Notes under the pieces: generated by a model
What the model was told of the DNA's origin: nothing
The model's database searches: none
What the model saw: only the letters and a program-made list of their open reading frames with translations
Part shown: positions 18,477 through 57,347 of the stretch, piece by piece
Layout: the number at the start of each line of letters is the position of its first letter
Numbering within the stretch: position 1 is the first letter of the stretch
Program-made: the position numbers and the translations under genes
Source of the DNA: Astrocystis sublimbata
Taxonomy: Eukaryota > Ascomycota > Sordariomycetes > Xylariales > Xylariaceae
NCBI GenBank assembly: GCA_022453515.1
Contig: JAJNNY010000112.1
Coordinates: 1 to 57,347 of the forward strand
DNA: 57,347 bases
Reading direction: 5' to 3'

Positions 18477-20664
18477 GGCGACGGGGAGAGGATATGAGAT
18501 GGGACTGGTGGCTGGTCCCGGGGATGATTATCGAATTCCAGAGCGAGGGGGAGGGGTCAGGAATCAGGATAGGCGAGAGGAAAGGGGGCGAAGGTCGATG
18601 GTCATGGGGCGCCGTGGTTGGAGCCAGTCGGTAGCCCGTTGTGAGGGCGAAGTCGGTCTCGTGGCTCGTTCTGCTCGTTGTGTACCACAGTAGTGTGGTG
18701 TAGAGTAGTATGATTCCAGACAAGTCGATAGGCAGTCTGCGGCAAAGCTCCCGTGGAGAATGAAGCGCCTCTGTCACGTACGTAGCACGACAGCTCAGTG
18801 ATTGCAGGGATGTTGATTGAAGCACGTGTGGTGATGGGGATTTCATGCACAGTGGACAAAGACAACGTTGCCAGACAACCTGCCAGAGAGGGGTCGAATT
18901 ACTATTAATCTCATCAGAAACCCAATCGCTGGTTGATATGTGGATGGTTGTGCAGAGAGAATGAACAACGAGCAACGAGTGTCGAACGTGGGATTTGGGG
19001 GCTTGGAAGGTCGGATGCAGGTGACAACTACACGTAGGGACGAGGTTCCATCCGCAGGCCGGCTGTCTGTGGTTTAACGGTCGAGTCCCATGAACCATGA
19101 ACCATGAAGCTTATCGCCGGCGGAAACCTTCCACTCACAACGCCTCTAACCTCTTGGAAGCTAGCGCCGGCGCTGTCCAGCTGCAGGGGCTTTGATGGGA
19201 TCCACTGCCCACTGGCCCCAGACGCACTAAGTACCTGATAAGAGTATCTACAGTACTGTACCTAGGTACACCTATAGGTATCAGATAAGCCCCATCTGAG
19301 GACCTGAGCGGCCCAGTGCAAGTGGTGGCAGCCCCAATGCCTGGCCCCCTGGCTTGATGTGGTGGAATGACCTCACTGCCACTTGTGACACTCCCTCCTG
19401 CCCATCGCGACCTCAGGTTGTGAACTTCCCCCACATTATCAGGCCAAAGATCTTACATATATCTCTCTCGTGATGCCGCAATAACATAGCTCGAGACCCT
19501 GGAGTCATCTGCTGTATTGTTATCAGCGTGGCTTATTGTCTGGCTCAACCTTTGATGAGAGGTGCCCAGGTACATTTACCTTGGGTAGGTATGTACATGT
19601 ACCTAGGCAGTACTTACTATTTCTTATCTCTCTGAGCCAACTGCAGGTGGTGATCTAGTACTGCCTCACCTATCTACAGGTACCTAGAGTACACATGTAC
19701 TTACCTGTAGGGTCTGGATTTGCGGTGCTTGATCGTGCCTATCGAGCCTATTACCTTGGGATGAACTTACTGTTATAGGTACTGCACAGCAGGTCATTCA
19801 GGCGGATGCCTCGCAGCACTGATTCGCCCTAAGTCGCCCAGTACCTTATCACGCTATCTCCGCACTGCTTGGCGGCTTCCGTAGCTGCGCTGGGTTCAAG
19901 CTGCGCGTGAGCACCCACTCGTGAGACCCACTTGTACCAGGGACTTCCCGTAGAGGGCTGGAATTGCCATTACCTAGAGGCTAGGCACCCGAGCACCTTG
20001 AACTTGCATCATTCAGTCATACCGTCGTCGTACCCTGGTGCCTGGGAACATTGAATCATCCGCACGGTCTGTACCATCAACTCGAGAGGTACTATAGGTA
20101 CCTACTACCTGCCTGTAAGCCTACCTAATGCCGTGTTGGTCGGACAAGAACCAGCCGACTTCCAAACACTACCTACCTTAGGCTACCTACCTCCATCAAT
20201 CTTACGTCGTCTCCCAAAGCTGAGGTGCAACTCATCTCACAACACCTCAACGCCGGCTTTCTATCGCCTTCTATCCAACTTGTTTGCTTCTTCTTTACAA
20301 GAATTAATCAGGTAATTTTCAGCACAGTAAACACACAGCTCCTCAATACAGTCGGCCCCTCCGTTGTTCATATCGACGTATCAGCAAGACAGCAGCGGAA
20401 GGGAACATCCAAATAGCCTTCGCCGTCCTCGGTGCCTGCTCATCTGCATCCCACCAGCCCCAGCCTGTCATCTCGCCTTGCCTGGCTGGGCATCACCAAC
20501 CGCCCCATGCGAACCAAACCGGCTGGCTGACCGACTAACGGGGTGCACGTACGACTCGAATCTTAATCTCTACCTCCCACTCTCAACCTCAGCCCTGACA
20601 AGTTCCCTGACGAGTTCCCTGTTTCTGCTGGCGTCGTCCTCCTCCGGCATTCATATCGTGAAAC
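18477..20664. other. intergenic crossing the outer edge of the palindrome
   Basis: The Rab promoter lies at the left end. The visible palindrome begins at about 19,374, with nothing special at that point because it is simply the mirror of the window's right edge. The stretch 19,240-20,130 is crowded with CCTAGGTA/AGGTACCT motifs (about 19,258-19,280, 19,568-19,615, 19,676-19,700, 20,090-20,125). No gene seen. Confidence 0.55.
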
Positions 20665-23049
20665 ATGTTCTCGGAATGTAAGTCGTCACTGCGAGCCGCT
20701 TCCGTCATGCTGAATCAAGTATTGGCCCAAGTCTCCTTGCCACCTCAACGCTCACAAGTCTAACCGCTAACCGGTCTAGATGCCTCGCGCTTTCTTTCAC
20801 AGTCGCAGTCTCGCATCTCCAGCTTTGGAGCGCCGGCCGACACCAACGAGCCTTCCGGTCGACAGCCTTCTGATGCACCTTCGAGAGCTGCGAGACAGCC
20901 AGCTCGCTTCTCCTACCAGTCACAGTCACGCCTCGGAAATCCATACCAGCCATCCCAGTCCAGGTTCGGAGGGTTCGCCTCCCGCTACCATACGGCCCCC
21001 GATGCACCGCTATTTCATAGCGCCGTGAACGAGTATCGAGACGACGATGAGGAGGACGTCAGGGAGGCTGCTGATTTCCATGCCCTGCAACAGTCACGTC
21101 GTGTGTTTGTCTCGAGCCGCTTGGAGGACAGCTCTGCTTCCGAGAATGACGCAAGTCGGGCATCCCTAGACCAGAGTGGAGAACGCGACAGCAGGCTGTA
21201 CGAAGACCGGGATCGTCCGATGGGTATAAAGAGTAGCTGGAACGGGGACTCGAGCTTCAAAGGTCGACAATCCACACGTAGGTCGAGGGAAGAGCCGCCG
21301 ACGGCCGCAGTGCAGATACGCACACGACAAAGCTCGGACAGCGACGAGGGCGGCAGGATGGTGGACGTCGGGCTGGAGTCGACGGTCATGGACAACTCGG
21401 TACCGGAGGACCTCCTCATGGAGGCCCCGATAGATTCGTCACCACCCGCTTTTCAACAGTTCAAATCCGTAAAAGGCAGCTCCAAGGGCGTGGCAAGCAA
21501 AGCGCACTCGAATTTTCAGCGTGACAGCCGTCTCATGCGTCAAGCTATTGCCGAGGAAGATGAGGACGATGACGAGCAGGAAACCGAGCAACCTGGAAAC
21601 ATCCCGGCTCCTCCACAGCCGCAGATGTACGGTGAGATTTTTGTACACGACCAGTTCTTCGCTTGGCTGTACCTGATTGCTATTGCGTCGCTCATTGCAA
21701 CATTCATACTGGTATGGCTGCATACTTCGCCACCCGCCGGAAAGATAGGCGACACCATCTACACAACACTCAACTCGTCGTTCTACCTGTTGGCCGTCGA
21801 TACACTCGTCTCGGTCGTGGTTGCGCTGCTCTGGATGGCAGCACTTAGATCGTTCATGCAACCCCTGGTCTTGCTGATACTCTTTGGTGTCCCAATAGTC
21901 CTGTTCTCGTTTTCACTGTACCCCATGATCTCTAGTTTCCAAGGACCGGATCATGGATCACGTCTACAGGATATCGTTATGAGGTATACTGCTATCATAC
22001 CTGGAGTCTTCTCAATAGTATGGGTATGGCTCTTGTACAAAGGGCGGCACGAGGTTCACAGGGCCGTCGATATGTTAGAATTCTCCAGCCGTATCCTGGC
22101 CGCGAATCCCGCGCTCGTGTTGCTCGGCTTCGGCGCGCTCGGTTTCGTCGTGGGCTGGACCTGGATATGGCTATGGATGTTCACTCGCGTCTTCCTAGGA
22201 GGCTATTTCTCGACAAAGTTGTCGGCGTTTGTGATTGGTACAGCAACATGGTGGCTTGCCATCTTCTTCTTCCTCATGTACGTCTGGACGCTCTCCGTCT
22301 TGAGTGGGGTTGTCCGTGCCACAACCGGAGGAACAGTGTCCAACTGGTACTTCCACCGCAACCTTCAGACGCCTACGTCGTCGAACGACATTGTCAAGGC
22401 CGCCTTGGGTCACTCTACAACGACGGTCTTTGGCACTATTTGCGCCTCGACTCTGCTCTCACTAGCCGTCCGGCTCCCCATCTTGATCCTCCCTCGTCGT
22501 ATTTCTGGTATCTTTGAATTCATAGGGTGGAAGCTTGCACCGAGGCCAGTCACAGTCTTAACCAACCCCTTGGCCGTGACTTTTGCCTCGGTTCATTCCC
22601 TGCCACTGATGGAATCAGCGTCGCAACTCGGCAGGATCCAGTTCTTGGCGACGGGTCCCACCACTACGCTCACGCCGAGCGCCTTCTCACGACGAAACCA
22701 GTCTGCCTCTTTGGTTCCATACCGCATGGCCAAACTACTACTGCACGCCGCACGTTTCGTGATGGCGATTGCCTTGGGATTCGCGGCTTGGGTGATGACA
22801 GCCCGCCAATTGCGAATTCAAGAGCCAGACAACACGAGCATAAGGGGCAGCGCGTACGCGTACGTCGTGGGCATCATTGCCTGTGCCATAGGATGGGCGG
22901 TGCTGGGAGCCATGGAGGGCATCATTTCGGGGATTCTCGATGCTGTTCTCATCTGCTACGCAAGTGAGAGGAGGCTTGAGCGTGCCACTTACTGCATCGA
23001 GGCTGCCAAGTTATTCGAGGATAGAAACCACGAAAGGGATATGGTCTGA
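20665..23049 (+). CDS. CTL/Pns1-family choline transporter-like protein (left copy)
   Basis: The family (Choline_transpo) comprises polytopic membrane proteins; yeast Pns1 is a member of unclear function and animal CTLs transport choline. Exons 20,665-20,677 and 20,780-23,049 give 760 residues. I chose the start because ATG at 20,665 opens a 13-nt first exon (MFSE) followed by a clean GTAAGT donor, and joins to YASRFLSQSQSRISSFG, a typical beginning in fungi. The first 290 residues are hydrophilic, rich in Ser, Arg and Gln, and contain an acidic EEDEDDDEQE run. About ten hydrophobic helices follow. Conserved-looking features in the second half are WTWIWLWMFTRVF, VVRATTGGTVSNWYF, and the LGHSTTTVFGTICASTLL segment typical of the CTL core. 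The last 50 residues include AVLICYASERRLE and a charged tail. A second identical copy lies in the right arm. Confidence 0.88.
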
Positions 23050-24973
23050 GATGCACGGTATTTTGGTCTTTCTGTTTAGATGTCGTCTGTGGTTACCAAG
23101 CATGTCACGGAGCCAGTCCTGGTCCAAGGTGTACGGCGCTTTCCCCCTTGAGCTTGCTGACCAAATGGGTGGTATGAGCTAGTGTTCTTTATTGAGTTTT
23201 GGAAATGAAATGATTTCTATTGTAGACCAGTTTGTTACCGTTTCTCACTACGTAGGGGATATCTCTGTACAATCATCGAAGCGCAAAGTCAGGGGCTTTT
23301 ATGAACTCCATGTAGCAGGTGCACACACACCCCGTTACTTGGAGATATAAATATAACTCTATAGCGACACGAGCGGGCCGGATCGATGGGGTTCCTACCC
23401 CTCGACCAGCGTAAGAGGCGACATACAAGTCCGAGTTTTCGGCTTCTTGCCTAGAGCCCCATTACCAGGGATGTTCAAGCTGAAGGTGGGTGCAGCAAGG
23501 GTGATATAACATCTTTACATGTCAGTGGGAAGTTTGATTGATAGGTATGTTGGCATTCCCTAGTTGGGGATTTGGTGTTCGCTTTGGCCAGGTGTAGGGC
23601 ATTAAATTCAAATTCATGATAATCGTCTGGTCAAGTCACAATGACGGGGGCTCACTATTTGCCGCAGCGGAAAGGAGTCGTTCCGATTCTGCAACACAGT
23701 AGAAACAGTTGGTGAAAGTGGCGAAAAATCCAAATTGCAGCCTACTTCCATTAACCAAAAAGCAGCCAAGCGAGGTCATGGTTGTTGTCCGGCGAGACCC
23801 CGAACCCCGAGCAGGAAGGAGCCCGGGTCTCAGCCACGGCAGCGTTGACAATGACCACGTGGCGGCACCGGCTGTCTTGAGGTCCCGGGGGGCTCGGTCT
23901 CATAACTCATGTGGCAATTCCCATCTCGCGAGCCGGGCCAGAGCCTGAACCTTTTAATGACATACTGGATAGTAGTGGTTTTTGTTCTTCTTTTTTGCGT
24001 GGCCTAGCCATACCGATGTGTGAGGATGTTGTTGTACATCTTGAAGCTGAATAGGTATATACGGTTGGTAGGCATCAATCATGCATCTCGGTAATTTGTA
24101 TTTGTGTTTGTATAGTGCCAACTCAAGGGGCCGCGGAACAGGACATAGGAGGCCTCACATGCGCCATAACACCCCAAATGGCAGGTTCGGTGGACCTGGG
24201 GCAATGGTAGCTCGGCGGGCCGCGAAACCAATGCGTTGCGAACTGCTGCCAGCAGTTTCCGATTGAGGGGATTGGGGGGCAAAGCACTGCCTCGACTGCC
24301 CCAGCCTTCAACATTTGATGATTGAGCGAGCACCTGGTCTGCCAGTCAATTAGGTACCTAGGTACGTACTGGGCACAGAGGCTGTGCTGGTCGGCTGGTG
24401 TGTACTTACGTGGTGCCTGTTTCCCCCCCGCAATGGCTTCGAACGTCAGCTGGCACTTACAACAACTCCCTTCCTTTATCTTCCATATCCCTCCCTCTCT
24501 CCGTGGGGTCTTTAGTCTAAACACCTCGATTCCTATATCCGTTCATCGTCTTCACCTAGAATCGCCATTCTCACCTCTGTCTTATCCCGAGGTGTATACT
24601 TGACTGTCGAGTGAGAAAAGGATTCTGCACTTACACGCCCCAAGGATCCGTTCATTGGCTTGGTATTTGTAGCGCAGCCTCGGCAGCGTGCTAGTACCTA
24701 CAGCTCGTCCCCGAACGCCCCCCGACGACCCCTCCTCCTCCCCCCTGCCTGCGCTACCGTACATCTGGAGCGATCGGGACAGTACTCGGGACCCCAAACG
24801 TCACCAACTTGGTCGGCTTGGTCCATTCCACACATAAACACCCCACTGCTTGACTTACACGCATCGTTGCTTGCTCTCGTCCTACGGTCTATCTACCTAC
24901 TAAAAGAGCAAAGAGCACACGGCAGCAAGGCCTACCAACAACGTCAACGCCAACACACATCAACAACACACGC
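23050..24973. other. intergenic between CTL-like and WW-domain genes
   Basis: No gene recognised. A CCTAGGTA cluster lies near 24,352-24,366. The last 500 bp is C-rich and poor in ATG, and reads as the promoter and 5' leader of the WW-domain gene. Confidence 0.5.
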
Positions 24974-26015
24974 ATGGCAGATCACGGCCCGCCCCCTCAA
25001 GTCCCAGAGGGCTGGGTGGCACGGTGGAACGCCGAGTACAAAGAATGGTAAGCTTGCCAGCGCCGCACTCTCGCATCGACAGACCAGGGAAAACACAGTC
25101 GTATAGCCAGGGCAGCAGTCTAACCTATGCAATCGCTCCTATAGGTTCTACGTCAACACATTCACAAAGGTGTCGCAGTGGGACAAGCCCACCGCCCCAG
25201 CCGAGGATCCCTACGCCTCACCCGCCCCAGCCGGCCCACCGCCTGGCTACACCCCGGGCTCGGGATCGCATAAATCTAGCGACAGCAAGAACCCCTTCGA
25301 TCGAGACAGGGGCTCTTCCGGAGGCGCTGCAGCTTCTTATCACAACCAGAGCAATGCCGAAGATGCCGATGCCCGTCTGGCCCGCCAGCTCCAGGAGGAG
25401 GAGAATGCGCGCGCTCGCAGCGCCGCCGGTTCGTCGGACCCCGTGAACCGCGGCTCCGGCTCCTCGCCCTTCCCTGACCAACTGCCACCGCGCGGCTCCA
25501 GCGGCGCTGGCGACAAGTCAAGAGGCCTGATAGGAAAGTTGTTCAGCAGCGGCAAGAACAAGTTGGACTCACAAGGCAACCACGGCGGAGGATATCCCGG
25601 TCAGGGATACGGCGGCCAAGGCGGCTATAACCAGCAACCCCCGCAGCAGGGATACTACGGCGGCGGTGGTCCACCAGGGCAATACGGAGGTGGCTACGGA
25701 CAACCTGGTTATGGACCACCACCCGGACAGTACGGCGGCGGCGGATACGGCGGCGGATACGGACAACCTGGTTATGGACCACCACCCGGACAGTACGGTG
25801 GCGGCTATGGAGGTGGCTACCAGCAACAACCCCAGGGAAGGTCCGGCGGCGGTGGTCTGGGTATGGCCGGTGGCGCAGCTCTCGGTCTCGGTGCCGGTGT
25901 CCTCGGTGGCGCCTTGATTGCCGATTCCATTAACGATCACGAGCAAGAGGCCTACGCAGATGGCTACAACGATGGCCAGGATGGTGGTGACTTTGATGGC
26001 GGCGGCGATTTTTAA
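24974..26015 (+). CDS. WW-domain, Gly/Tyr/Gln-rich low-complexity protein (left copy)
   Basis: Exons 24,974-25,047 and 25,145-26,015 encode 314 residues. The intron splits the Trp-25 codon inside the WW domain. The WW domain spans residues 11-41 with both signature tryptophans (W14, W37), the aromatic pair F26-Y27 and P40, so binding of proline-rich ligands is expected. Then come a Pro/Ala-rich linker, a charged helix (ADARLARQLQEEENARAR), a basic GLIGKLFSSGKNK patch, and about 80 residues of Gly/Tyr/Gln/Pro low complexity with a 21-residue repeat. A short hydrophobic Gly/Ala stretch (GGAALGLGAGVLGGALIADS) and an acidic tail ending in DGGGDF close the protein. Proteins of this layout recur in filamentous fungi, but I know of no established function. 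The Gly-rich part looks prone to phase separation, which is inference. Confidence 0.88.
25695..25798 (+). repeat. 63-bp-period internal repeat in the WW-domain gene
   Basis: A 41-nt run is repeated exactly at 25,695-25,735 and 25,758-25,798 (period 63 nt, 21 codons). It encodes two YGQPGYGPPPGQYGG units. The same repeat is mirrored in the right arm near 50,925-51,028. Confidence 0.85.
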
Positions 26016-27157
26016 TAAGACACACAATGAGATCTCTCCGAGACTACCATGGAAAGAACTTACTACTGATGAGCTTTACGGAATACTTTCGCGTCACGAT
26101 TGCTGCTTCTTTTTTCACGCAGATCCGTTCAAAACGCGGCCAGGTCCAGTGCTAAAATCCGACGACGATGCTAGCGTTACCTATACCTAAAAGTCCTACA
26201 AGGAATCCATGTTTGGACTGTGCGACCTGACAGCTGCTTGCGCCTGTGTTTTTGAAGAACGTGAGAGGCGATGGGCTACAAATAATGGATTGTTGGATTG
26301 TTGATTTATGTATCCATTCAGAAACATTGGGAAGGGTCTACGCGTACTTAGGCACCATCGTACCTACATCCTAGGTAGGCTGTTGCTGGTACTTGTAGTT
26401 GCCAGCAGGTCAAATGCTCCTTAAAACGAATCAAAAACATGCACAATATACCGTATATGAAAGGTAATTTATTTTGTACACAAGTGAATATGGCCAACTG
26501 TGTTTGTTCAAGGAGTGTTTTCTCCTTCCATTTTGGCATGTGATTATTGCAATGAGGATGATGCTCTGGTTGCATGAGTTGCTTAATCACAACGTTTAGT
26601 TTGCATTGGCTGCATCCTTTTACACTGCGAAGTAAGATTCTCTGGTTTGAGATTCCGCTAAACTTCACAATTGCTTCGTGGAGCACTAGATAGGCATTTC
26701 TATTGACCTGGGCATGGCATCTTAAGCCTAAAGGGCGAAATGCCAGAGAAGCCCGCATGGGATGTATTTTACCGTCCCTGGTTGCGTTTGCTCCAGAGTG
26801 ATTCTTAGTTGCGTGATGACAGGCAAGGATGGCTGAATGAAAACTGCCATGCGAATCTTGGCTATAGATGTCAATATATATATATAACCTTACCGGAGTA
26901 TATACGACTGCGTTGCACATTTCACATCACCAACAATCGCCTCGTCAGGTTGGAAGAGCAAACGGTCGATCAGCAATTTAATGGCCACTCCCATTTCACT
27001 CATGGATAGAGGGTAGAATAGGTCAAGAACAAGAAAAGAAGGTTTCGCCGGCGGGTACGCTTGTGCTTTCAGGGGTACAATAACGATACAGCATTGCTTC
27101 CTATGACTTAGTAATTATAGTATACGCGACGTCGTAACCAACTGCATGTGCGCGTGC
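26016..27157. other. intergenic, convergent 3' flanks of WW and EMC7 genes
   Basis: The only sizeable open frame is on the minus strand at 26,348-26,920 (190 codons, ATG start). Its product is rich in His, Cys and Ile, with no recognisable domain. It lies in the converging 3' flanks of two good genes, so it is more likely chance or an antisense transcript than a protein gene. AT content is higher than in neighbouring coding DNA. Confidence 0.45.
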
Positions 27158-28229
27158 CTAGTTCTTCTTACCACCCTTCTTGCCGCCATTCCGGGGACCT
27201 GACTCTGCCGACTCCTCCTTGGCGCCGCTCCCCTGTCCGGCCAGGAAGCCGGCCATGTCGAAGTTGCCCATCGGATTGGCGCCCGGCTGCGGTCCGCCCA
27301 TGAGGCTGTTCATCGGGTTCTTCTTGGACTGCTCCTCGAACTCGGCGCGGGTTTCGGGGTCCACTGTTGAAAAAAAAGAGGGGAGGTGTCAGTTAGTGAT
27401 GTAATTAATACATAGTCCGGATTGATACTCATATCAGGCGGGAGGGGGCGGAGGGGGAAAGAGAGAGGGGGAAACGCACTGTTCTCCATTAGCTTGGGCA
27501 TGCCGACGAAGAGGGCCAAGCTGACAAGGCCCATGAGGATCATGGGGTTCTTGAGGATGCTCAGGATATTGACTGCGAGGTAGAACATGGGCATATATTA
27601 GCTAGCGTCGTTTACTTATCATCTTCTCATTCGCGATCAACGAGCAAGTGCTCAAGCGTATGAGCCGAGTTGGGCGCCCAGCCCCGAGGCAGGCAGGCAG
27701 GCAGGCTACGAATTAACTCACAGGCACCGCGTTCCGTGTAGAAGACCTTGTGGCCGAGAGCTTTGACAGGGAAAGCCCCGCCTTCGGCGACCGGCCGCAA
27801 CTCCTCGCCCTTGTTGTCCCAATCATTTCCGCGGTACGTCTCCCAGACCCGCAGGCTGACGTCTTCTGTATGGGCATGAAGGGTCTTGGCCTCGCCGGCA
27901 GCAGCGCCGGCTGTCACGGGGATCACGTCGAGGCGCAGCGGCGCAAAGCCGTGGGTGGCGCAGAACACGTCGGCGAGGTAGGACCCGGGGGTGACGTTGC
28001 GGAAGACGAAGGTGTTGTCGACGGTCAGGGGCGCCGCGTACGAGGCGCCGAGGGCGGTCAGGGTGGCGTGGGTGGAAGGCGGCAGGACGGCCGGGTTCGG
28101 GATCTGCGGCGACGGCGGGATGGTAAAGGTCACCGTTGTTGTTGTTGTTGTTGCGGCGACTGGTGAGAGGAGGAGAGACAAGGCCTGGAGGCCGAGGGCC
28201 AGGGGTATCGTCGGGATTGGGAAAAGCAT
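27158..28229 (-). CDS. emc7: ER membrane protein complex subunit 7, EMC7 (left copy)
   Basis: EMC7 is a single-pass subunit of the ER membrane protein complex, an insertase for tail-anchored and multi-pass proteins; its lumenal beta-sandwich is the family mark. Exons 27,722-28,229, 27,480-27,572 and 27,158-27,363 give 268 residues. A signal peptide is clear (residues 1-26, hydrophobic, ending PVAA). The beta-sandwich follows, with an FRNVTPGSYLADV block and FAPLRLDV. A membrane helix runs through NPMILMGLVSLALFVGMPKL around residues 178-197. The cytosolic tail carries NPMNSLMGG, a Gly-rich segment and a Lys/Gly-rich end (GGKKGGKKN). The asparagine in FRNVT is a possible N-glycosylation site. 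The ATG at 28,229 is the only one giving a signal peptide. The last intron is near the minimum confident length but has good donor and acceptor sites. Confidence 0.9.
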
Positions 28230-28912
28230 CTTGCACCAACCACTTCTTCTGGTGTCCGAAGCGCACGGCGGAGAAGTGTCGAGGGGGGAGATCCAAGATC
28301 AGGGGGTATCTCGAACTGGTGATGCTCGATGCTGTTCACACAAATGGTGAGGCGGTGTTGGTGTAAGGTTGTCTGCGCATATATGTAGCTACCTGCTTAG
28401 CAGCTCTAGCCAATGGCTCCCGGTCTCACATCATACAGTGCATCTTCCCTCTTATCGCACTCAGTAAATAGGTAATATTGTGGTCCTGGAGGGGCACGCA
28501 TCAGCAGGAGCATAGGTAGGTAGGTACCTAAGTAGGCACCTCTTTCCAACTCGGAACCTGGACGATATAGTAGGAACTCTTTTAAACACAGGACCTCTGC
28601 TTTCAATTTCATTATTTTGTTATTATTGCCTTTGCGCTGACTGCACTGGTCGAATGACCCAGTTCGTAAAAGCCCTCATACATGGAACTTGCCAGCGTCG
28701 GTGATGGGCAGCAGGCCTCCAAATGTACTAGTATCTATCTACCCAAGTACTCGGTAGGGTAGGGAGCGGTTGAGTTGAACTGAACAATGTGCTGCTGATA
28801 TTGCAGACTTCCATACCTTATCTTCCTTCCCTGACGAGCATATCTCAAAATACCTGCATCGATTCATCCATCTCTAGCTTAGTCCGACAACTCCACCCAC
28901 AAAACTTCACTT
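28230..28912. other. intergenic between EMC7 and O-acetylhomoserine sulfhydrylase
   Basis: This holds the EMC7 promoter and the 3' flank of the tandem upstream gene. A GTAGGTAGGTACCT cluster lies at about 28,515-28,531. No gene seen. Confidence 0.5.
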
Positions 28913-30501
<1,589 letters not shown>

Positions 30502-31549
30502 TGTGTTCAAGGTCTATATAAAGCACAAGTGGATGGAATATCAAATTGAGTATATTCAACGGAGGACGAACACGCGGGGAATTGCGCAACGCAGGACAGA
30601 TGCATCTACATTGAAGGTCACGTCCCAATTACCTTAGTACAGCTGCTTGGGCGAGTCAGGTCTTGCCCTTTTTCCTCTTCCCGCCTCCCCAGGAGCAGAA
30701 CACTTCGCAGCGCGTGCAGCTCTCCTTTGTTAGACAGAAGGGTCTACCTTACCTGATTGCTTCCGACACCGCGCCCTGATTTGGCGTCATCGTGGGGTAG
30801 ACACCCCGATAGGTCGACACCTTTACCTTATTCGCGGCGCGGAGGTTCAGCTTGGCGGGGTCGCGAGCACGCCATCGACGCCATGTCTTCGGTCTGGGAA
30901 TACGATCTCAATCGGTGGGGTCATGTCTCAGGAGATCTCACCCAGCCATGCGTAGGATTGCACATGGCGCGCGGGGTAAACGAAAGCAACGCATACTAAT
31001 CAATGACACCCGGCATGGCGCCATCCCCTTTACAAAACCACTAGGTTGGACGGGTCTGACGGATCTCTGCGACGGGTCTCTGCCGGCCGGCTGGCCGGGG
31101 CCTCACACCCATCCAGTTAGTCTGAGGATTGAGGATATATCCAGGTTCATCTATTTTTTTCTTTATTAGAATGTAAATGAATCTCTTTGTAATGCTCGCA
31201 TTCGAAGAGTAGATGAGCAAGTTACATTCCATATGATATCAATCCTTTCCGGCCCATAATGTCCCTCCTCAAACCAAAGGTATAAATCCTGAACTCCCGT
31301 CATATCTTCATCACTAGTCGAATTGTTATTATGTCCATATGTCGTCTAGACAAAGCTGCCATACTCGTGGTCATCACTTGTCTTAGTATATAGTCTTTTT
31401 ATGGCGCCAGCGTGATACACCACTAGACTTATAATCAGTGGTCACGCCCATATCATCCCCATTCGTCGTCCCCTGAGGCGGTAGCGCTCGGTATGGTGAC
31501 AGTGGAATGTCCGTGTAACAAGGAGTGACAGCAGCGAGTTTGGAAGCAC
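30502..31549. other. promoter region of the sulfhydrylase and 3' flank of the MARVEL-like gene
   Basis: This contains the CYS3-type site and a second near-match (ATGGCGCCAG at about 31,400). At 31,140-31,260, minus strand, a faint HLLFECEHY reading recalls the C-terminal motif of LINE ORF2. It may be a tiny relic or chance. No gene seen. Confidence 0.45.
31015..31024. promoter_or_regulatory. CYS3/MetR-type sulfur regulator site (left copy)
   Basis: The 10-bp perfect palindrome ATGGCGCCAT fits the consensus ATGRYRYCAT known for Neurospora CYS3 and Aspergillus MetR bZIP regulators. It stands 514 bp upstream of the O-acetylhomoserine sulfhydrylase start, a classical target of sulfur-limitation control. 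Chance occurrence of one site in a few kb is possible. Confidence 0.5.
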
Positions 31550-45174: not shown

Positions 45175-46221
45175 GTGCTTCCAAACTCGCTGCTGTCACT
45201 CCTTGTTACACGGACATTCCACTGTCACCATACCGAGCGCTACCGCCTCAGGGGACGACGAATGGGGATGATATGGGCGTGACCACTGATTATAAGTCTA
45301 GTGGTGTATCACGCTGGCGCCATAAAAAGACTATATACTAAGACAAGTGATGACCACGAGTATGGCAGCTTTGTCTAGACGACATATGGACATAATAACA
45401 ATTCGACTAGTGATGAAGATATGACGGGAGTTCAGGATTTATACCTTGGTTTGAGGAGGGACATTATGGGCCGGAAAGGATTGATATCATATGGAATGTA
45501 ACTTGCTCATCTACTCTTCGAATGCGAGCATTACAAAGAGATTCATTTACATTCTAATAAAGAAAAAAATAGATGAACCTGGATATATCCTCAATCCTCA
45601 GACTAACTGGATGGGTGTGAGGCCCCGGCCAGCCGGCCGGCAGAGACCCGTCGCAGAGATCCGTCAGACCCGTCCAACCTAGTGGTTTTGTAAAGGGGAT
45701 GGCGCCATGCCGGGTGTCATTGATTAGTATGCGTTGCTTTCGTTTACCCCGCGCGCCATGTGCAATCCTACGCATGGCTGGGTGAGATCTCCTGAGACAT
45801 GACCCCACCGATTGAGATCGTATTCCCAGACCGAAGACATGGCGTCGATGGCGTGCTCGCGACCCCGCCAAGCTGAACCTCCGCGCCGCGAATAAGGTAA
45901 AGGTGTCGACCTATCGGGGTGTCTACCCCACGATGACGCCAAATCAGGGCGCGGTGTCGGAAGCAATCAGGTAAGGTAGACCCTTCTGTCTAACAAAGGA
46001 GAGCTGCACGCGCTGCGAAGTGTTCTGCTCCTGGGGAGGCGGGAAGAGGAAAAAGGGCAAGACCTGACTCGCCCAAGCAGCTGTACTAAGGTAATTGGGA
46101 CGTGACCTTCAATGTAGATGCATCTGTCCTGCGTTGCGCAATTCCCCGCGTGTTCGTCCTCCGTTGAATATACTCAATTTGATATTCCATCCACTTGTGC
46201 TTTATATAGACCTTGAACACA
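45175..46221. other. promoter region of sulfhydrylase, right copy
   Basis: Mirror of 30,502-31,549, with one base fewer in a short T run at 45,446-45,447. A TTTATATA stretch lies at 46,201-46,208, only 14 bp before the sulfhydrylase ATG, so it is probably leader sequence and not a TATA box. Confidence 0.45.
45699..45708. promoter_or_regulatory. CYS3/MetR-type sulfur regulator site (right copy)
   Basis: Mirror copy of the ATGGCGCCAT site, 514 bp upstream of the right-hand O-acetylhomoserine sulfhydrylase start. It matches the ATGRYRYCAT consensus exactly. Confidence 0.5.
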
Positions 46222-47810
<1,589 letters not shown>

Positions 47811-48493
47811 AAGTGAAGTTTTGTGGGTGGAGTTGTCGGACTAAGCTAGAGATGGATGAATCGATGCAGGTATTTTGAGATATGCTCGTCAGGGAAGGAA
47901 GATAAGGTATGGAAGTCTGCAATATCAGCAGCACATTGTTCAGTTCAACTCAACCGCTCCCTACCCTACCGAGTACTTGGGTAGATAGATACTAGTACAT
48001 TTGGAGGCCTGCTGCCCATCACCGACGCTGGCAAGTTCCATGTATGAGGGCTTTTACGAACTGGGTCATTCGACCAGTGCAGTCAGCGCAAAGGCAATAA
48101 TAACAAAATAATGAAATTGAAAGCAGAGGTCCTGTGTTTAAAAGAGTTCCTACTATATCGTCCAGGTTCCGAGTTGGAAAGAGGTGCCTACTTAGGTACC
48201 TACCTACCTATGCTCCTGCTGATGCGTGCCCCTCCAGGACCACAATATTACCTATTTACTGAGTGCGATAAGAGGGAAGATGCACTGTATGATGTGAGAC
48301 CGGGAGCCATTGGCTAGAGCTGCTAAGCAGGTAGCTACATATATGCGCAGACAACCTTACACCAACACCGCCTCACCATTTGTGTGAACAGCATCGAGCA
48401 TCACCAGTTCGAGATACCCCCTGATCTTGGATCTCCCCCCTCGACACTTCTCCGCCGTGCGCTTCGGACACCAGAAGAAGTGGTTGGTGCAAG
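47811..48493. other. intergenic between sulfhydrylase and EMC7, right copy
   Basis: Mirror of 28,230-28,912; no differences noticed and no gene seen. Confidence 0.5.
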
Positions 48494-49565
48494 ATGCTTT
48501 TCCCAATCCCGACGATACCCCTGGCCCTCGGCCTCCAGGCCTTGTCTCTCCTCCTCTCACCAGTCGCCGCAACAACAACAACAACAACGGTGACCTTTAC
48601 CATCCCGCCGTCGCCGCAGATCCCGAACCCGGCCGTCCTGCCGCCTTCCACCCACGCCACCCTGACCGCCCTCGGCGCCTCGTACGCGGCGCCCCTGACC
48701 GTCGACAACACCTTCGTCTTCCGCAACGTCACCCCCGGGTCCTACCTCGCCGACGTGTTCTGCGCCACCCACGGCTTTGCGCCGCTGCGCCTCGACGTGA
48801 TCCCCGTGACAGCCGGCGCTGCTGCCGGCGAGGCCAAGACCCTTCATGCCCATACAGAAGACGTCAGCCTGCGGGTCTGGGAGACGTACCGCGGAAATGA
48901 TTGGGACAACAAGGGCGAGGAGTTGCGGCCGGTCGCCGAAGGCGGGGCTTTCCCTGTCAAAGCTCTCGGCCACAAGGTCTTCTACACGGAACGCGGTGCC
49001 TGTGAGTTAATTCGTAGCCTGCCTGCCTGCCTGCCTCGGGGCTGGGCGCCCAACTCGGCTCATACGCTTGAGCACTTGCTCGTTGATCGCGAATGAGAAG
49101 ATGATAAGTAAACGACGCTAGCTAATATATGCCCATGTTCTACCTCGCAGTCAATATCCTGAGCATCCTCAAGAACCCCATGATCCTCATGGGCCTTGTC
49201 AGCTTGGCCCTCTTCGTCGGCATGCCCAAGCTAATGGAGAACAGTGCGTTTCCCCCTCTCTCTTTCCCCCTCCGCCCCCTCCCGCCTGATATGAGTATCA
49301 ATCCGGACTATGTATTAATTACATCACTAACTGACACCTCCCCTCTTTTTTTTCAACAGTGGACCCCGAAACCCGCGCCGAGTTCGAGGAGCAGTCCAAG
49401 AAGAACCCGATGAACAGCCTCATGGGCGGACCGCAGCCGGGCGCCAATCCGATGGGCAACTTCGACATGGCCGGCTTCCTGGCCGGACAGGGGAGCGGCG
49501 CCAAGGAGGAGTCGGCAGAGTCAGGTCCCCGGAATGGCGGCAAGAAGGGTGGTAAGAAGAACTAG
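48494..49565 (+). CDS. emc7: ER membrane protein complex subunit 7, EMC7 (right copy)
   Basis: Mirror copy of the gene at 27,158-28,229: exons 48,494-49,001, 49,151-49,243 and 49,360-49,565, 268 residues with signal peptide, lumenal beta-sandwich, one membrane helix and Lys/Gly-rich tail. EMC works as a fixed-stoichiometry complex, so an extra dose of one subunit alone would be expected to be degraded or neutral. Confidence 0.9.
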
Positions 49566-50707
49566 GCACGCGCACATGCAGTTGGTTACGACGTCGCGTA
49601 TACTATAATTACTAAGTCATAGGAAGCAATGCTGTATCGTTATTGTACCCCTGAAAGCACAAGCGTACCCGCCGGCGAAACCTTCTTTTCTTGTTCTTGA
49701 CCTATTCTACCCTCTATCCATGAGTGAAATGGGAGTGGCCATTAAATTGCTGATCGACCGTTTGCTCTTCCAACCTGACGAGGCGATTGTTGGTGATGTG
49801 AAATGTGCAACGCAGTCGTATATACTCCGGTAAGGTTATATATATATATTGACATCTATAGCCAAGATTCGCATGGCAGTTTTCATTCAGCCATCCTTGC
49901 CTGTCATCACGCAACTAAGAATCACTCTGGAGCAAACGCAACCAGGGACGGTAAAATACATCCCATGCGGGCTTCTCTGGCATTTCGCCCTTTAGGCTTA
50001 AGATGCCATGCCCAGGTCAATAGAAATGCCTATCTAGTGCTCCACGAAGCAATTGTGAAGTTTAGCGGAATCTCAAACCAGAGAATCTTACTTCGCAGTG
50101 TAAAAGGATGCAGCCAATGCAAACTAAACGTTGTGATTAAGCAACTCATGCAACCAGAGCATCATCCTCATTGCAATAATCACATGCCAAAATGGAAGGA
50201 GAAAACACTCCTTGAACAAACACAGTTGGCCATATTCACTTGTGTACAAAATAAATTACCTTTCATATACGGTATATTGTGCATGTTTTTGATTCGTTTT
50301 AAGGAGCATTTGACCTGCTGGCAACTACAAGTACCAGCAACAGCCTACCTAGGATGTAGGTACGATGGTGCCTAAGTACGCGTAGACCCTTCCCAATGTT
50401 TCTGAATGGATACATAAATCAACAATCCAACAATCCATTATTTGTAGCCCATCGCCTCTCACGTTCTTCAAAAACACAGGCGCAAGCAGCTGTCAGGTCG
50501 CACAGTCCAAACATGGATTCCTTGTAGGACTTTTAGGTATAGGTAACGCTAGCATCGTCGTCGGATTTTAGCACTGGACCTGGCCGCGTTTTGAACGGAT
50601 CTGCGTGAAAAAAGAAGCAGCAATCGTGACGCGAAAGTATTCCGTAAAGCTCATCAGTAGTAAGTTCTTTCCATGGTAGTCTCGGAGAGATCTCATTGTG
50701 TGTCTTA
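49566..50707. other. intergenic, convergent 3' flanks, right copy
   Basis: Mirror of 26,016-27,157. The same 190-codon open frame of doubtful meaning appears on the plus strand at 49,803-50,375. Confidence 0.45.
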
Positions 50708-51749
50708 TTAAAAATCGCCGCCGCCATCAAAGTCACCACCATCCTGGCCATCGTTGTAGCCATCTGCGTAGGCCTCTTGCTCGTGATCGTTAATGGAATC
50801 GGCAATCAAGGCGCCACCGAGGACACCGGCACCGAGACCGAGAGCTGCGCCACCGGCCATACCCAGACCACCGCCGCCGGACCTTCCCTGGGGTTGTTGC
50901 TGGTAGCCACCTCCATAGCCGCCACCGTACTGTCCGGGTGGTGGTCCATAACCAGGTTGTCCGTATCCGCCGCCGTATCCGCCGCCGCCGTACTGTCCGG
51001 GTGGTGGTCCATAACCAGGTTGTCCGTAGCCACCTCCGTATTGCCCTGGTGGACCACCGCCGCCGTAGTATCCCTGCTGCGGGGGTTGCTGGTTATAGCC
51101 GCCTTGGCCGCCGTATCCCTGACCGGGATATCCTCCGCCGTGGTTGCCTTGTGAGTCCAACTTGTTCTTGCCGCTGCTGAACAACTTTCCTATCAGGCCT
51201 CTTGACTTGTCGCCAGCGCCGCTGGAGCCGCGCGGTGGCAGTTGGTCAGGGAAGGGCGAGGAGCCGGAGCCGCGGTTCACGGGGTCCGACGAACCGGCGG
51301 CGCTGCGAGCGCGCGCATTCTCCTCCTCCTGGAGCTGGCGGGCCAGACGGGCATCGGCATCTTCGGCATTGCTCTGGTTGTGATAAGAAGCTGCAGCGCC
51401 TCCGGAAGAGCCCCTGTCTCGATCGAAGGGGTTCTTGCTGTCGCTAGATTTATGCGATCCCGAGCCCGGGGTGTAGCCAGGCGGTGGGCCGGCTGGGGCG
51501 GGTGAGGCGTAGGGATCCTCGGCTGGGGCGGTGGGCTTGTCCCACTGCGACACCTTTGTGAATGTGTTGACGTAGAACCTATAGGAGCGATTGCATAGGT
51601 TAGACTGCTGCCCTGGCTATACGACTGTGTTTTCCCTGGTCTGTCGATGCGAGAGTGCGGCGCTGGCAAGCTTACCATTCTTTGTACTCGGCGTTCCACC
51701 GTGCCACCCAGCCCTCTGGGACTTGAGGGGGCGGGCCGTGATCTGCCAT
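50708..51749 (-). CDS. WW-domain, Gly/Tyr/Gln-rich low-complexity protein (right copy)
   Basis: Mirror copy of the gene at 24,974-26,015: exons 51,676-51,749 and 50,708-51,578, 314 residues. The internal 63-nt repeat is the same length in both arms. This is notable because such a tract is prone to slip, so little time or few replications separate the copies (or they are one molecule read twice). Confidence 0.88.
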
Positions 51750-53673
51750 GCGTGTGTTGTTGATGTGTGTTGGCGTTGACGTTGTTGGTAGGCCTTGCTG
51801 CCGTGTGCTCTTTGCTCTTTTAGTAGGTAGATAGACCGTAGGACGAGAGCAAGCAACGATGCGTGTAAGTCAAGCAGTGGGGTGTTTATGTGTGGAATGG
51901 ACCAAGCCGACCAAGTTGGTGACGTTTGGGGTCCCGAGTACTGTCCCGATCGCTCCAGATGTACGGTAGCGCAGGCAGGGGGGAGGAGGAGGGGTCGTCG
52001 GGGGGCGTTCGGGGACGAGCTGTAGGTACTAGCACGCTGCCGAGGCTGCGCTACAAATACCAAGCCAATGAACGGATCCTTGGGGCGTGTAAGTGCAGAA
52101 TCCTTTTCTCACTCGACAGTCAAGTATACACCTCGGGATAAGACAGAGGTGAGAATGGCGATTCTAGGTGAAGACGATGAACGGATATAGGAATCGAGGT
52201 GTTTAGACTAAAGACCCCACGGAGAGAGGGAGGGATATGGAAGATAAAGGAAGGGAGTTGTTGTAAGTGCCAGCTGACGTTCGAAGCCATTGCGGGGGGG
52301 AAACAGGCACCACGTAAGTACACACCAGCCGACCAGCACAGCCTCTGTGCCCAGTACGTACCTAGGTACCTAATTGACTGGCAGACCAGGTGCTCGCTCA
52401 ATCATCAAATGTTGAAGGCTGGGGCAGTCGAGGCAGTGCTTTGCCCCCCAATCCCCTCAATCGGAAACTGCTGGCAGCAGTTCGCAACGCATTGGTTTCG
52501 CGGCCCGCCGAGCTACCATTGCCCCAGGTCCACCGAACCTGCCATTTGGGGTGTTATGGCGCATGTGAGGCCTCCTATGTCCTGTTCCGCGGCCCCTTGA
52601 GTTGGCACTATACAAACACAAATACAAATTACCGAGATGCATGATTGATGCCTACCAACCGTATATACCTATTCAGCTTCAAGATGTACAACAACATCCT
52701 CACACATCGGTATGGCTAGGCCACGCAAAAAAGAAGAACAAAAACCACTACTATCCAGTATGTCATTAAAAGGTTCAGGCTCTGGCCCGGCTCGCGAGAT
52801 GGGAATTGCCACATGAGTTATGAGACCGAGCCCCCCGGGACCTCAAGACAGCCGGTGCCGCCACGTGGTCATTGTCAACGCTGCCGTGGCTGAGACCCGG
52901 GCTCCTTCCTGCTCGGGGTTCGGGGTCTCGCCGGACAACAACCATGACCTCGCTTGGCTGCTTTTTGGTTAATGGAAGTAGGCTGCAATTTGGATTTTTC
53001 GCCACTTTCACCAACTGTTTCTACTGTGTTGCAGAATCGGAACGACTCCTTTCCGCTGCGGCAAATAGTGAGCCCCCGTCATTGTGACTTGACCAGACGA
53101 TTATCATGAATTTGAATTTAATGCCCTACACCTGGCCAAAGCGAACACCAAATCCCCAACTAGGGAATGCCAACATACCTATCAATCAAACTTCCCACTG
53201 ACATGTAAAGATGTTATATCACCCTTGCTGCACCCACCTTCAGCTTGAACATCCCTGGTAATGGGGCTCTAGGCAAGAAGCCGAAAACTCGGACTTGTAT
53301 GTCGCCTCTTACGCTGGTCGAGGGGTAGGAACCCCATCGATCCGGCCCGCTCGTGTCGCTATAGAGTTATATTTATATCTCCAAGTAACGGGGTGTGTGT
53401 GCACCTGCTACATGGAGTTCATAAAAGCCCCTGACTTTGCGCTTCGATGATTGTACAGAGATATCCCCTACGTAGTGAGAAACGGTAACAAACTGGTCTA
53501 CAATAGAAATCATTTCATTTCCAAAACTCAATAAAGAACACTAGCTCATACCACCCATTTGGTCAGCAAGCTCAAGGGGGAAAGCGCCGTACACCTTGGA
53601 CCAGGACTGGCTCCGTGACATGCTTGGTAACCACAGACGACATCTAAACAGAAAGACCAAAATACCGTGCATC
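51750..53673. other. intergenic between WW-domain and CTL-like genes, right copy
   Basis: Mirror of 23,050-24,973; no gene seen. Confidence 0.5.
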
Positions 53674-56058
53674 TCAGACCATATCCCTTTCGTGGTTTCT
53701 ATCCTCGAATAACTTGGCAGCCTCGATGCAGTAAGTGGCACGCTCAAGCCTCCTCTCACTTGCGTAGCAGATGAGAACAGCATCGAGAATCCCCGAAATG
53801 ATGCCCTCCATGGCTCCCAGCACCGCCCATCCTATGGCACAGGCAATGATGCCCACGACGTACGCGTACGCGCTGCCCCTTATGCTCGTGTTGTCTGGCT
53901 CTTGAATTCGCAATTGGCGGGCTGTCATCACCCAAGCCGCGAATCCCAAGGCAATCGCCATCACGAAACGTGCGGCGTGCAGTAGTAGTTTGGCCATGCG
54001 GTATGGAACCAAAGAGGCAGACTGGTTTCGTCGTGAGAAGGCGCTCGGCGTGAGCGTAGTGGTGGGACCCGTCGCCAAGAACTGGATCCTGCCGAGTTGC
54101 GACGCTGATTCCATCAGTGGCAGGGAATGAACCGAGGCAAAAGTCACGGCCAAGGGGTTGGTTAAGACTGTGACTGGCCTCGGTGCAAGCTTCCACCCTA
54201 TGAATTCAAAGATACCAGAAATACGACGAGGGAGGATCAAGATGGGGAGCCGGACGGCTAGTGAGAGCAGAGTCGAGGCGCAAATAGTGCCAAAGACCGT
54301 CGTTGTAGAGTGACCCAAGGCGGCCTTGACAATGTCGTTCGACGACGTAGGCGTCTGAAGGTTGCGGTGGAAGTACCAGTTGGACACTGTTCCTCCGGTT
54401 GTGGCACGGACAACCCCACTCAAGACGGAGAGCGTCCAGACGTACATGAGGAAGAAGAAGATGGCAAGCCACCATGTTGCTGTACCAATCACAAACGCCG
54501 ACAACTTTGTCGAGAAATAGCCTCCTAGGAAGACGCGAGTGAACATCCATAGCCATATCCAGGTCCAGCCCACGACGAAACCGAGCGCGCCGAAGCCGAG
54601 CAACACGAGCGCGGGATTCGCGGCCAGGATACGGCTGGAGAATTCTAACATATCGACGGCCCTGTGAACCTCGTGCCGCCCTTTGTACAAGAGCCATACC
54701 CATACTATTGAGAAGACTCCAGGTATGATAGCAGTATACCTCATAACGATATCCTGTAGACGTGATCCATGATCCGGTCCTTGGAAACTAGAGATCATGG
54801 GGTACAGTGAAAACGAGAACAGGACTATTGGGACACCAAAGAGTATCAGCAAGACCAGGGGTTGCATGAACGATCTAAGTGCTGCCATCCAGAGCAGCGC
54901 AACCACGACCGAGACGAGTGTATCGACGGCCAACAGGTAGAACGACGAGTTGAGTGTTGTGTAGATGGTGTCGCCTATCTTTCCGGCGGGTGGCGAAGTA
55001 TGCAGCCATACCAGTATGAATGTTGCAATGAGCGACGCAATAGCAATCAGGTACAGCCAAGCGAAGAACTGGTCGTGTACAAAAATCTCACCGTACATCT
55101 GCGGCTGTGGAGGAGCCGGGATGTTTCCAGGTTGCTCGGTTTCCTGCTCGTCATCGTCCTCATCTTCCTCGGCAATAGCTTGACGCATGAGACGGCTGTC
55201 ACGCTGAAAATTCGAGTGCGCTTTGCTTGCCACGCCCTTGGAGCTGCCTTTTACGGATTTGAACTGTTGAAAAGCGGGTGGTGACGAATCTATCGGGGCC
55301 TCCATGAGGAGGTCCTCCGGTACCGAGTTGTCCATGACCGTCGACTCCAGCCCGACGTCCACCATCCTGCCGCCCTCGTCGCTGTCCGAGCTTTGTCGTG
55401 TGCGTATCTGCACTGCGGCCGTCGGCGGCTCTTCCCTCGACCTACGTGTGGATTGTCGACCTTTGAAGCTCGAGTCCCCGTTCCAGCTACTCTTTATACC
55501 CATCGGACGATCCCGGTCTTCGTACAGCCTGCTGTCGCGTTCTCCACTCTGGTCTAGGGATGCCCGACTTGCGTCATTCTCGGAAGCAGAGCTGTCCTCC
55601 AAGCGGCTCGAGACAAACACACGACGTGACTGTTGCAGGGCATGGAAATCAGCAGCCTCCCTGACGTCCTCCTCATCGTCGTCTCGATACTCGTTCACGG
55701 CGCTATGAAATAGCGGTGCATCGGGGGCCGTATGGTAGCGGGAGGCGAACCCTCCGAACCTGGACTGGGATGGCTGGTATGGATTTCCGAGGCGTGACTG
55801 TGACTGGTAGGAGAAGCGAGCTGGCTGTCTCGCAGCTCTCGAAGGTGCATCAGAAGGCTGTCGACCGGAAGGCTCGTTGGTGTCGGCCGGCGCTCCAAAG
55901 CTGGAGATGCGAGACTGCGACTGTGAAAGAAAGCGCGAGGCATCTAGACCGGTTAGCGGTTAGACTTGTGAGCGTTGAGGTGGCAAGGAGACTTGGGCCA
56001 ATACTTGATTCAGCATGACGGAAGCGGCTCGCAGTGACGACTTACATTCCGAGAACAT
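53674..56058 (-). CDS. CTL/Pns1-family choline transporter-like protein (right copy)
   Basis: Mirror copy of the gene at 20,665-23,049: exons 56,046-56,058 (13 nt) and 53,674-55,943, 760 residues, identical product. It is the outermost gene visible in the right arm; the next gene outward on the left (Rab) has no mirror inside the window. Confidence 0.88.
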
Positions 56059-57347
56059 GTTTCACGATATGAATGCCGGAGGAGGACGACGCCAGCAGAA
56101 ACAGGGAACTCGTCAGGGAACTTGTCAGGGCTGAGGTTGAGAGTGGGAGGTAGAGATTAAGATTCGAGTCGTACGTGCACCCCGTTAGTCGGTCAGCCAG
56201 CCGGTTTGGTTCGCATGGGGCGGTTGGTGATGCCCAGCCAGGCAAGGCGAGATGACAGGCTGGGGCTGGTGGGATGCAGATGAGCAGGCACCGAGGACGG
56301 CGAAGGCTATTTGGATGTTCCCTTCCGCTGCTGTCTTGCTGATACGTCGATATGAACAACGGAGGGGCCGACTGTATTGAGGAGCTGTGTGTTTACTGTG
56401 CTGAAAATTACCTGATTAATTCTTGTAAAGAAGAAGCAAACAAGTTGGATAGAAGGCGATAGAAAGCCGGCGTTGAGGTGTTGTGAGATGAGTTGCACCT
56501 CAGCTTTGGGAGACGACGTAAGATTGATGGAGGTAGGTAGCCTAAGGTAGGTAGTGTTTGGAAGTCGGCTGGTTCTTGTCCGACCAACACGGCATTAGGT
56601 AGGCTTACAGGCAGGTAGTAGGTACCTATAGTACCTCTCGAGTTGATGGTACAGACCGTGCGGATGATTCAATGTTCCCAGGCACCAGGGTACGACGACG
56701 GTATGACTGAATGATGCAAGTTCAAGGTGCTCGGGTGCCTAGCCTCTAGGTAATGGCAATTCCAGCCCTCTACGGGAAGTCCCTGGTACAAGTGGGTCTC
56801 ACGAGTGGGTGCTCACGCGCAGCTTGAACCCAGCGCAGCTACGGAAGCCGCCAAGCAGTGCGGAGATAGCGTGATAAGGTACTGGGCGACTTAGGGCGAA
56901 TCAGTGCTGCGAGGCATCCGCCTGAATGACCTGCTGTGCAGTACCTATAACAGTAAGTTCATCCCAAGGTAATAGGCTCGATAGGCACGATCAAGCACCG
57001 CAAATCCAGACCCTACAGGTAAGTACATGTGTACTCTAGGTACCTGTAGATAGGTGAGGCAGTACTAGATCACCACCTGCAGTTGGCTCAGAGAGATAAG
57101 AAATAGTAAGTACTGCCTAGGTACATGTACATACCTACCCAAGGTAAATGTACCTGGGCACCTCTCATCAAAGGTTGAGCCAGACAATAAGCCACGCTGA
57201 TAACAATACAGCAGATGACTCCAGGGTCTCGAGCTATGTTATTGCGGCATCACGAGAGAGATATATGTAAGATCTTTGGCCTGATAATGTGGGGGAAGTT
57301 CACAACCTGAGGTCGCGATGGGCAGGGGAGTGTCACAAGTGGCAGTG
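56059..57347. other. intergenic, outer end of right arm, cut by window edge
   Basis: Mirror of 19,374-20,664, with the same CCTAGGTA-rich DNA. It differs only by two bases within the last 40 bp. There are no telomere repeats at the edge and no gene. Confidence 0.55.

What the first reader, a model, noticed from the sequence alone, without database searches (positions are those of the whole stretch)
19374..57347. Giant gene-bearing palindrome, arms of about 19 kb, above 99.9 percent identical
Reading the right 19 kb as reverse complement reproduces the left 19 kb base for base with only a handful of small differences. Six intact multi-exon genes are present twice in mirror order. Palindromes of this size and perfection are rare in haploid fungal nuclear genomes because they are unstable and, where RIP exists, mutated. 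Either this is a recent fold-back amplification (hairpin-capped break, breakage-fusion-bridge or template switching) or a fold-back assembly/read artefact. Both outcomes matter for any gene-copy statement.
Basis: seen in the sequence. Interest (0 to 1): 0.95.

Follow-up and report, generated by a model that had tools for sequence, protein, structure and literature searches.

The report
Fold-back assembly artefact, not a palindrome
The huge mirror-image stretch at the end of this fungal contig is almost certainly a sequencing and assembly fold-back at an AT-rich hairpin-prone spot, so the mirrored genes are not a real second copy.

Summary
The mirror is in the sequence as reported: 19374-57347 pairs with its own reverse complement at 99.94%. 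It is very probably not in the chromosome. The window is a whole contig (C16), and the mirror runs to its last base. C69 starts with the arm's inner ~50 bp, passes the fold point and continues into different sequence. C87 and C126 hold that sequence folded back from the opposite side, at other points within ~100 bp. In related fungi the first large C69 gene shares a contig length with the arm genes in 42 of 49 taxa (choline transporter) and 21 of 25 (sulfhydrylase); within-arm control 22 of 28. Mirrors occur at 4 of 18 unselected contig starts. Seven of 8 turns seen are extremely AT-rich, the eighth moderately. Best explanation: strands snapped back at AT-rich imperfect inverted repeats during DNA handling, library preparation or amplification, and fold-back reads extended contigs where others failed. 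The genome is Astrocystis sublimbata. The wet-lab step is not shown; no raw reads were available.

The parts
1..19373 (+). Flank of contig C16 outside the mirror
   Evidence: Outside the self-alignment; the two pieces tried, 1-1500 and 17300-19373, each match only themselves in the assembly
19374..38365 (+). Left arm, contiguous with the flank; taken as the real chromosomal copy
38366..57347 (-). Right arm: fold-back duplicate, ending at the last base of the contig; all 10 indel columns are bases missing here
38344..38430 (-). Turn of the fold: reverse complement matches C69:1-89 (87 of 89 columns, 2 gaps), ~50 bp of arm-side sequence plus the native imperfect inverted repeat
38344..38384 (.). 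Approximate place of the AT-rich imperfect inverted repeat at which C16 turns (C69:48-89); 160 bp around the centre are 10% GC
21025..23049 (+). Choline transporter-like gene (PF04515); mirrored ORF at 53674-55698
25170..26015 (+). Gly/Gln-rich ORF, no Pfam match; mirrored at 50708-51553
27627..28229 (-). EMC7-like coding stretch (PF09430); mirrored at 48494-49096
28913..30151 (-). O-acetylhomoserine sulfhydrylase-like gene (PF01053); mirrored at 46572-47810
35841..37706 (+). AMP-binding (acyl-CoA synthetase-like) gene, the last Pfam-supported stretch before the fold; mirrored at 39020-40885

Best explanation
The palindrome is a fold-back artefact. The chromosome runs straight from the left arm through an AT-rich stretch into the DNA of contigs C69/C126. 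At that stretch a DNA strand snapped back through an imperfect inverted repeat and was copied or capped, giving molecules or reads of the form arm - turn - reverse arm, and the assembler used such reads to extend contigs, which therefore end in their own mirror. Shown at contig level: the straight continuation, fold-backs from both sides at several points of one ~100-bp site, the same pattern on other contigs, mostly very AT-rich turns, and the conserved straight gene order. Inferred: that few straight reads crossed the spot, and that the snap-back happened in vitro (breakage and repair of melted AT-rich DNA, amplification, or a library hairpin) and not in the living fungus.
For: (1) The mirror ends on the last base of the contig; in 6 of 6 contigs whose mirror I followed to its outer end (C16, C87, C126, C2, C20, C120) it reaches the contig's end; C189 and C48 were not followed. 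(2) C69 begins with arm sequence, crosses the fold and continues into non-mirrored DNA. Its first 39 bases occur, at up to 3 mismatches, only at C69:1 and in the left arm of C16. (3) C87:1412-14594 is C69:7-13202 at 99.6%, preceded by its own mirror; C126 (332 kb; first 2800 bases read) is C69:102-1581, preceded by its mirror. So one site folds at three points and from both sides. (4) Gene order: the C69 gene and the arm genes share a contig length in 42 of 49 (choline transporter) and 21 of 25 (sulfhydrylase) taxa (lists); within-arm control 22 of 28. Tags run in order in Anthostomella pinea (071440, 071470, 071510), Hypoxylon CI-4A (320940, 320943, 320946) and Apiospora phragmitis (001940, 001938, 001934). 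(5) 4 of 18 unselected contig starts hold a mirror. (6) C48 runs through the fold point of C2 into the start of C106. (7) 7 of 8 turns lie in the lowest 1.2% of 160-bp windows for GC, while six outer ends of mirrors have 45-57% GC. (8) Palindromic reads are a published long-read artefact (PMC6218980, PMC12870357).
Against: No contig found spans arm and C69 with more than ~50 bp of arm, and no raw reads were available. The right arm is almost error-free. Fold-back reads are rare in unamplified libraries (0.5% in the PacBio control of PMC6218980; virtually none in PacBio HiFi gDNA in PMC12870357), and neither platform nor amplification is known here. Synteny rests on equal contig lengths, a proxy, and fails in 7 of 49 and 4 of 25 taxa. 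Turning at native inverted repeats is also what in vivo hairpin models predict. The predicted fold of the site is no more stable than shuffles (z 0.04). The turn of C48 is only moderately AT-rich (36% GC, lowest 4.3% of windows) and has a 223-bp unmirrored spacer. The region folded in C2 has an 87% alike relative on C129, so a repeat could confuse the C2/C48/C106 case.
Confidence: 0.93

Rival explanations
1. A real, recent inverted duplication in the sequenced strain: a break or stalled fork near 38.36 kb folded back through the inverted repeat and was copied (hairpin-capped break, ODIRA-like, or breakage-fusion-bridge), leaving two copies of the arm genes.
For: Near-perfect arms and a turn at a pre-existing inverted repeat, as in yeast inverted amplicons (PMC10766183, passages). 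No contig found spans the straight junction with long flanks on both sides.
Against: C69, C87 and C126 show the other side of the same site present and, in C87 and C126, itself folded back. Mirrors occur at 4 of 18 unselected contig starts. The mirror has no outer junction; it stops at the contig end. Conserved gene order runs straight through.
Confidence: 0.04
2. Hairpin-capped DNA ends exist in the living fungus at AT-rich inverted repeats, in some nuclei or cells, and were sequenced faithfully as fold-backs on both sides of each site.
For: Both sides of one site fold, at different inverted repeats; 7 of 8 turns lie in extremely AT-rich DNA.
Against: It would need several capped ends without telomeres across the genome. 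In vitro melting, breakage, repair or self-priming would give the same reads, and fold-back reads are a known long-read artefact.
Confidence: 0.03
3. A variant inside the artefact reading (its share is counted within the 0.93 of the best explanation): missed or missing SMRTbell adaptors, or unsplit nanopore template-complement reads, folded at random fragment ends, with no role for the sequence at the turn.
For: Known source of palindromic reads: 0.5% of reads in an unamplified PacBio control, a mixture with false positives, in PMC6218980. The C48 turn is not extremely AT-rich.
Against: Random ends would not put 7 of 8 turns in the lowest 1.2% of GC windows, although selection of contig ends at AT-rich gaps could do part of this. 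At the C16 turn the unmirrored bases are those of the native imperfect repeat.
Confidence: 0.15

Closest known systems
[quoted passage not shown] first part and passages seen)
   Same: Sequence followed by its own reverse complement; inverted duplications pass into assemblies
   Different: Seen here in finished contigs, at contig ends, with turns mostly in extremely AT-rich DNA; whether this DNA was amplified is not known
Fold-back artefacts in long reads flagged by Breakinator (PMC12870357; first part and passages seen)
   Same: Half of the read on one strand, half on the other
   Different: That paper profiles reads (about 0.55-0.6% in ONT gDNA, virtually none in PacBio HiFi gDNA); here only contigs were available
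ODIRA / hairpin-capped inverted amplicons of yeast (PMC10766183; passages seen)
   Same: Turn at a pre-existing short interrupted inverted repeat
   Different: No second junction seen, origin and copy number not tested, and the straight junction is present in the assembly
Gene-bearing palindromes of chromosomes, as on the human Y and in Folsomia candida (PMC5490193; passages seen)
   Same: Genes in mirror order
   Different: Those are reported as parts of chromosomes or scaffolds; this one runs off the contig end and is contradicted by C69

Membership tests
Fold-back (palindromic) read/assembly artefact | Mirror contradicted by other sequence of the same sample that runs straight through the fold | tested here: met
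   C69 runs through the C16 fold into different DNA, with only ~50 bp of arm; C48 runs through the C2 fold into C106
Fold-back (palindromic) read/assembly artefact | Mirror has no outer junction; it ends with the read or contig | tested here: met
   6 of 6 contigs whose mirror was followed to its outer end
Fold-back (palindromic) read/assembly artefact | Occurs at many unrelated places of one assembly | tested here: met
   4 of 18 unselected 10-kb contig starts; arms over 5 kb would be missed there and contig ends were not sampled
Fold-back (palindromic) read/assembly artefact | Single-copy read depth over the arms | not testable with these tools
   No raw reads held
In vivo inverted amplification (ODIRA, hairpin-capped break) | Turn at a pre-existing interrupted inverted repeat | tested here: met
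   The minimum-energy fold of C69:1-110 has hairpins at 7-36 and 48-89, and C87 and C16 turn there; stability not above shuffles
In vivo inverted amplification (ODIRA, hairpin-capped break) | Raised copy number and a second junction in the genome | tested here: inconclusive
   No second junction in the contig; copy number not testable without reads
Stable gene-bearing chromosomal palindrome | Both outer boundaries joined to different flanks | tested here: inconclusive
   Only the left boundary is seen; the right arm ends with the contig, so its outer boundary cannot be read

The most novel reading that the evidence does not exclude
AT-rich inverted-repeat clusters of this fungus are sites where chromosomes in living cells break and both ends are closed by hairpins, so that fold-back DNA from both sides of each site is real and recurrent.
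Probability: 0.03. Interest if true: 0.8.

Novelty: not a real feature. Interest (0 to 1): 0.1.

Why it matters
The arm genes should be counted once. In the protein collection the cluster of the fused EMC7/sulfhydrylase protein holds two member sequences on a single contig (P0001), as expected if both mirror copies were annotated; the transporter cluster holds one member (P0241), so this sign is mixed. The same flaw is at other contig ends here, so gene copy numbers, synteny breaks and palindrome counts from this assembly need the fold-backs trimmed first. It also suggests a cheap screen: a mirror that ends with the contig should be treated as an artefact until reads show otherwise.

Tried and rejected
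Structural RNA or tRNA in the window: none reported (ARAGORN; Rfam at gathering scores). Telomere repeats in the window: the motif scan printed none. A dispersed repeat as cause of the C16 fold: the arm and flank pieces tested (30000-31000, 17300-19373, 1-1500) have no copies outside C16, and the inner 39 bases only the C69 copy. At C20, however, the centre region contains a ~214-bp element with copies on many contigs, and the C2 region has relatives on C48 and C129. C120's centre region had only weak matches on one other contig, so no straight continuation was found for it, nor for C20. Using right-arm deletions as frame-breaking errors: those at 19396-19397, 31278, 32817 and 33298 lie outside the Pfam-supported stretches, so they do not decide. 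C69 as arbiter of two further A-run differences: it agrees with the left arm at 38312 and with the right arm at 38333, so not all differences are right-arm errors. Thermodynamic stability of the hairpins: not above shuffles. Finding the paper for this genome and its library method: not found (listings only). Other paper searches were used as listings to pick the papers named.

Full report
WHAT IS THERE. The window (57,347 bases) is the whole of contig C16 of a 42.6-Mb, 189-contig assembly. Proteins of the window sit in public data on a 57347-base contig of Astrocystis sublimbata (P0001; P0241); that it belongs to the Xylariaceae is recalled. Bases 19374-57347 align to their own reverse complement at 99.937%; the centre lies between 38365 and 38366. 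One arm differs from the other by 2 substitutions and 10 indel columns, of which 1 and 5 lie more than 60 bp from the centre. In all 10 indel columns the base is missing from the right arm: 5 are single bases of A or T runs, 2 are one TC step and 3 belong to the imperfect turn. The mirror ends at base 57347, the last base of the contig, so no outer junction is seen.

THE FOLD POINT. Read on the minus strand, the turn (38430 to 38344) matches the first 89 bases of contig C69 (87 of 89 columns). About 50 of these bases are arm-side sequence; the rest is an AT-rich imperfect inverted repeat. Its first 39 bases occur in the assembly, at up to 3 mismatches, only there and in the left arm of C16. 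The unmirrored bases at the turn of C16 are those of the native repeat, as expected when one strand folds on itself and is copied. The minimum-energy fold of C69:1-110 as DNA has two hairpins, at 7-36 and 48-89; the centroid keeps only the first. C16 turns at the second and C87 at the first. Their stability is not above that of shuffled sequence (z 0.04), so this is a match of place, not of unusual strength.

THE OTHER SIDE FOLDS TOO. C87 holds C69:7-13202 at 99.6% and in front of it the mirror of C69:26-1439. C126, a 332-kb contig of which I read the first 2800 bases, holds C69:102-1581 and in front of it the mirror of C69:99-1439. One site of about 100 bp thus gave fold-backs at three points and from both sides, which a single chromosomal inverted duplication does not predict.

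OTHER CONTIGS. Of 20 contig starts read (10 kb each), two (C69, C87) were chosen because they matched the fold; of the 18 others, 4 (C2, C20, C120, C189) hold a mirror. In C2 (1-7062), C20 (1-10570) and C120 (1-10314), as in C87 (1-2837) and C126 (1-2658), it starts at contig base 1; C189 could not be followed to its end. Arms longer than 5 kb would have been missed, and contig ends other than that of C16 were not sampled. At C2, contig C48 runs through the fold point into sequence of the first 187 bases of C106 and then folds in its turn; this region has an 87% alike relative on C129, so repeats may play a part. For C20 and C120 no straight continuation was found. Seven turns have 7-26% GC over 160 bp, in the lowest 1.2% of 2,835 windows of the sampled DNA, which include five of these turns; the turn of C48 has a 223-bp unmirrored spacer of 36% GC, in the lowest 4.3%. 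Six outer ends of mirrors have 45-57% GC. Of 15 unfolded contig starts, C60, C69, C30 and C100 are AT-rich too (4-34%), so contigs break at such places with or without a fold.

GENE ORDER IN RELATIVES. I took three genes: the choline transporter-like gene and the sulfhydrylase-like gene of the arm, and the WD40 gene at C69:1005 onward, the first large one beyond the fold. Across the fold: 42 of 49 taxa (transporter and WD40) and 21 of 25 (sulfhydrylase and WD40). Control inside the arm: 21 of 26, 22 of 28 with two named taxa that I had left out. In the three genomes where serial tags of all three genes were seen, the order is transporter, sulfhydrylase, WD40 (Anthostomella pinea, Hypoxylon CI-4A, Apiospora phragmitis). 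The straight continuation is thus the conserved order, kept about as often across the fold as within the arm.

MECHANISM. The pattern fits fold-back molecules or reads used by an assembler at gaps. Palindromic reads reach 44-48% of reads in amplified Arabidopsis DNA and 0.5% in the unamplified control (PMC6218980; first part of the text and passages read); ONT genomic DNA shows about 0.55-0.6% fold-backs and PacBio HiFi virtually none (PMC12870357; first part and passages). Which platform or step made them here is not known. The AT-rich turns at native inverted repeats suggest that melted AT-rich DNA snapped back and was capped or extended in vitro; a hairpin-capped molecule would act as a natural SMRTbell end (my inference). 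Yeast inverted amplicons also turn at native interrupted repeats (PMC10766183; passages read), so the turn alone does not exclude an in vivo origin. The contig evidence and the gene order make it unlikely.

RIP. Two sampled AT-rich stretches (of C18 and C189) show RIP-like dinucleotide bias (TpA/ApT 1.4 and 1.9); the arm of C16 does not (0.80) (the use of these ratios is recalled). This fits an arm that was never truly duplicated, but a very recent duplication would look the same.

VERDICT. Observation confirmed; not a real chromosomal feature (0.93). Interest low, except as a warning for copy-number statements from this assembly.

Noticed in passing
C69, C87, C126 (L012/L035, L013/L034, L045): The same locus is held by three contigs, so small contigs are partly redundant and the assembly length is inflated there.
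   Followed up: partly
window 27627-30151: EMC7-like and sulfhydrylase-like stretches, neighbours on one strand, are found together in one protein model in public annotation of this and several other fungi (e.g. P0001, P0002); possibly a gene-model fusion.
   Followed up: no
window 25682-25805 (mirror 50918-51041): 63-bp tandem repeat, 2 copies, inside the Gly/Gln-rich ORF.
   Followed up: no
L020 (C20) around 4975-5596: The centre region of the C20 fold-back contains a ~214-bp dispersed element with copies on many contigs (only the best candidates were scored).
   Followed up: no
   Followed up: no
L019 (C18) 1-10000: Start of C18 is AT-rich (36.5% GC) with RIP-like dinucleotide bias.
   Followed up: no
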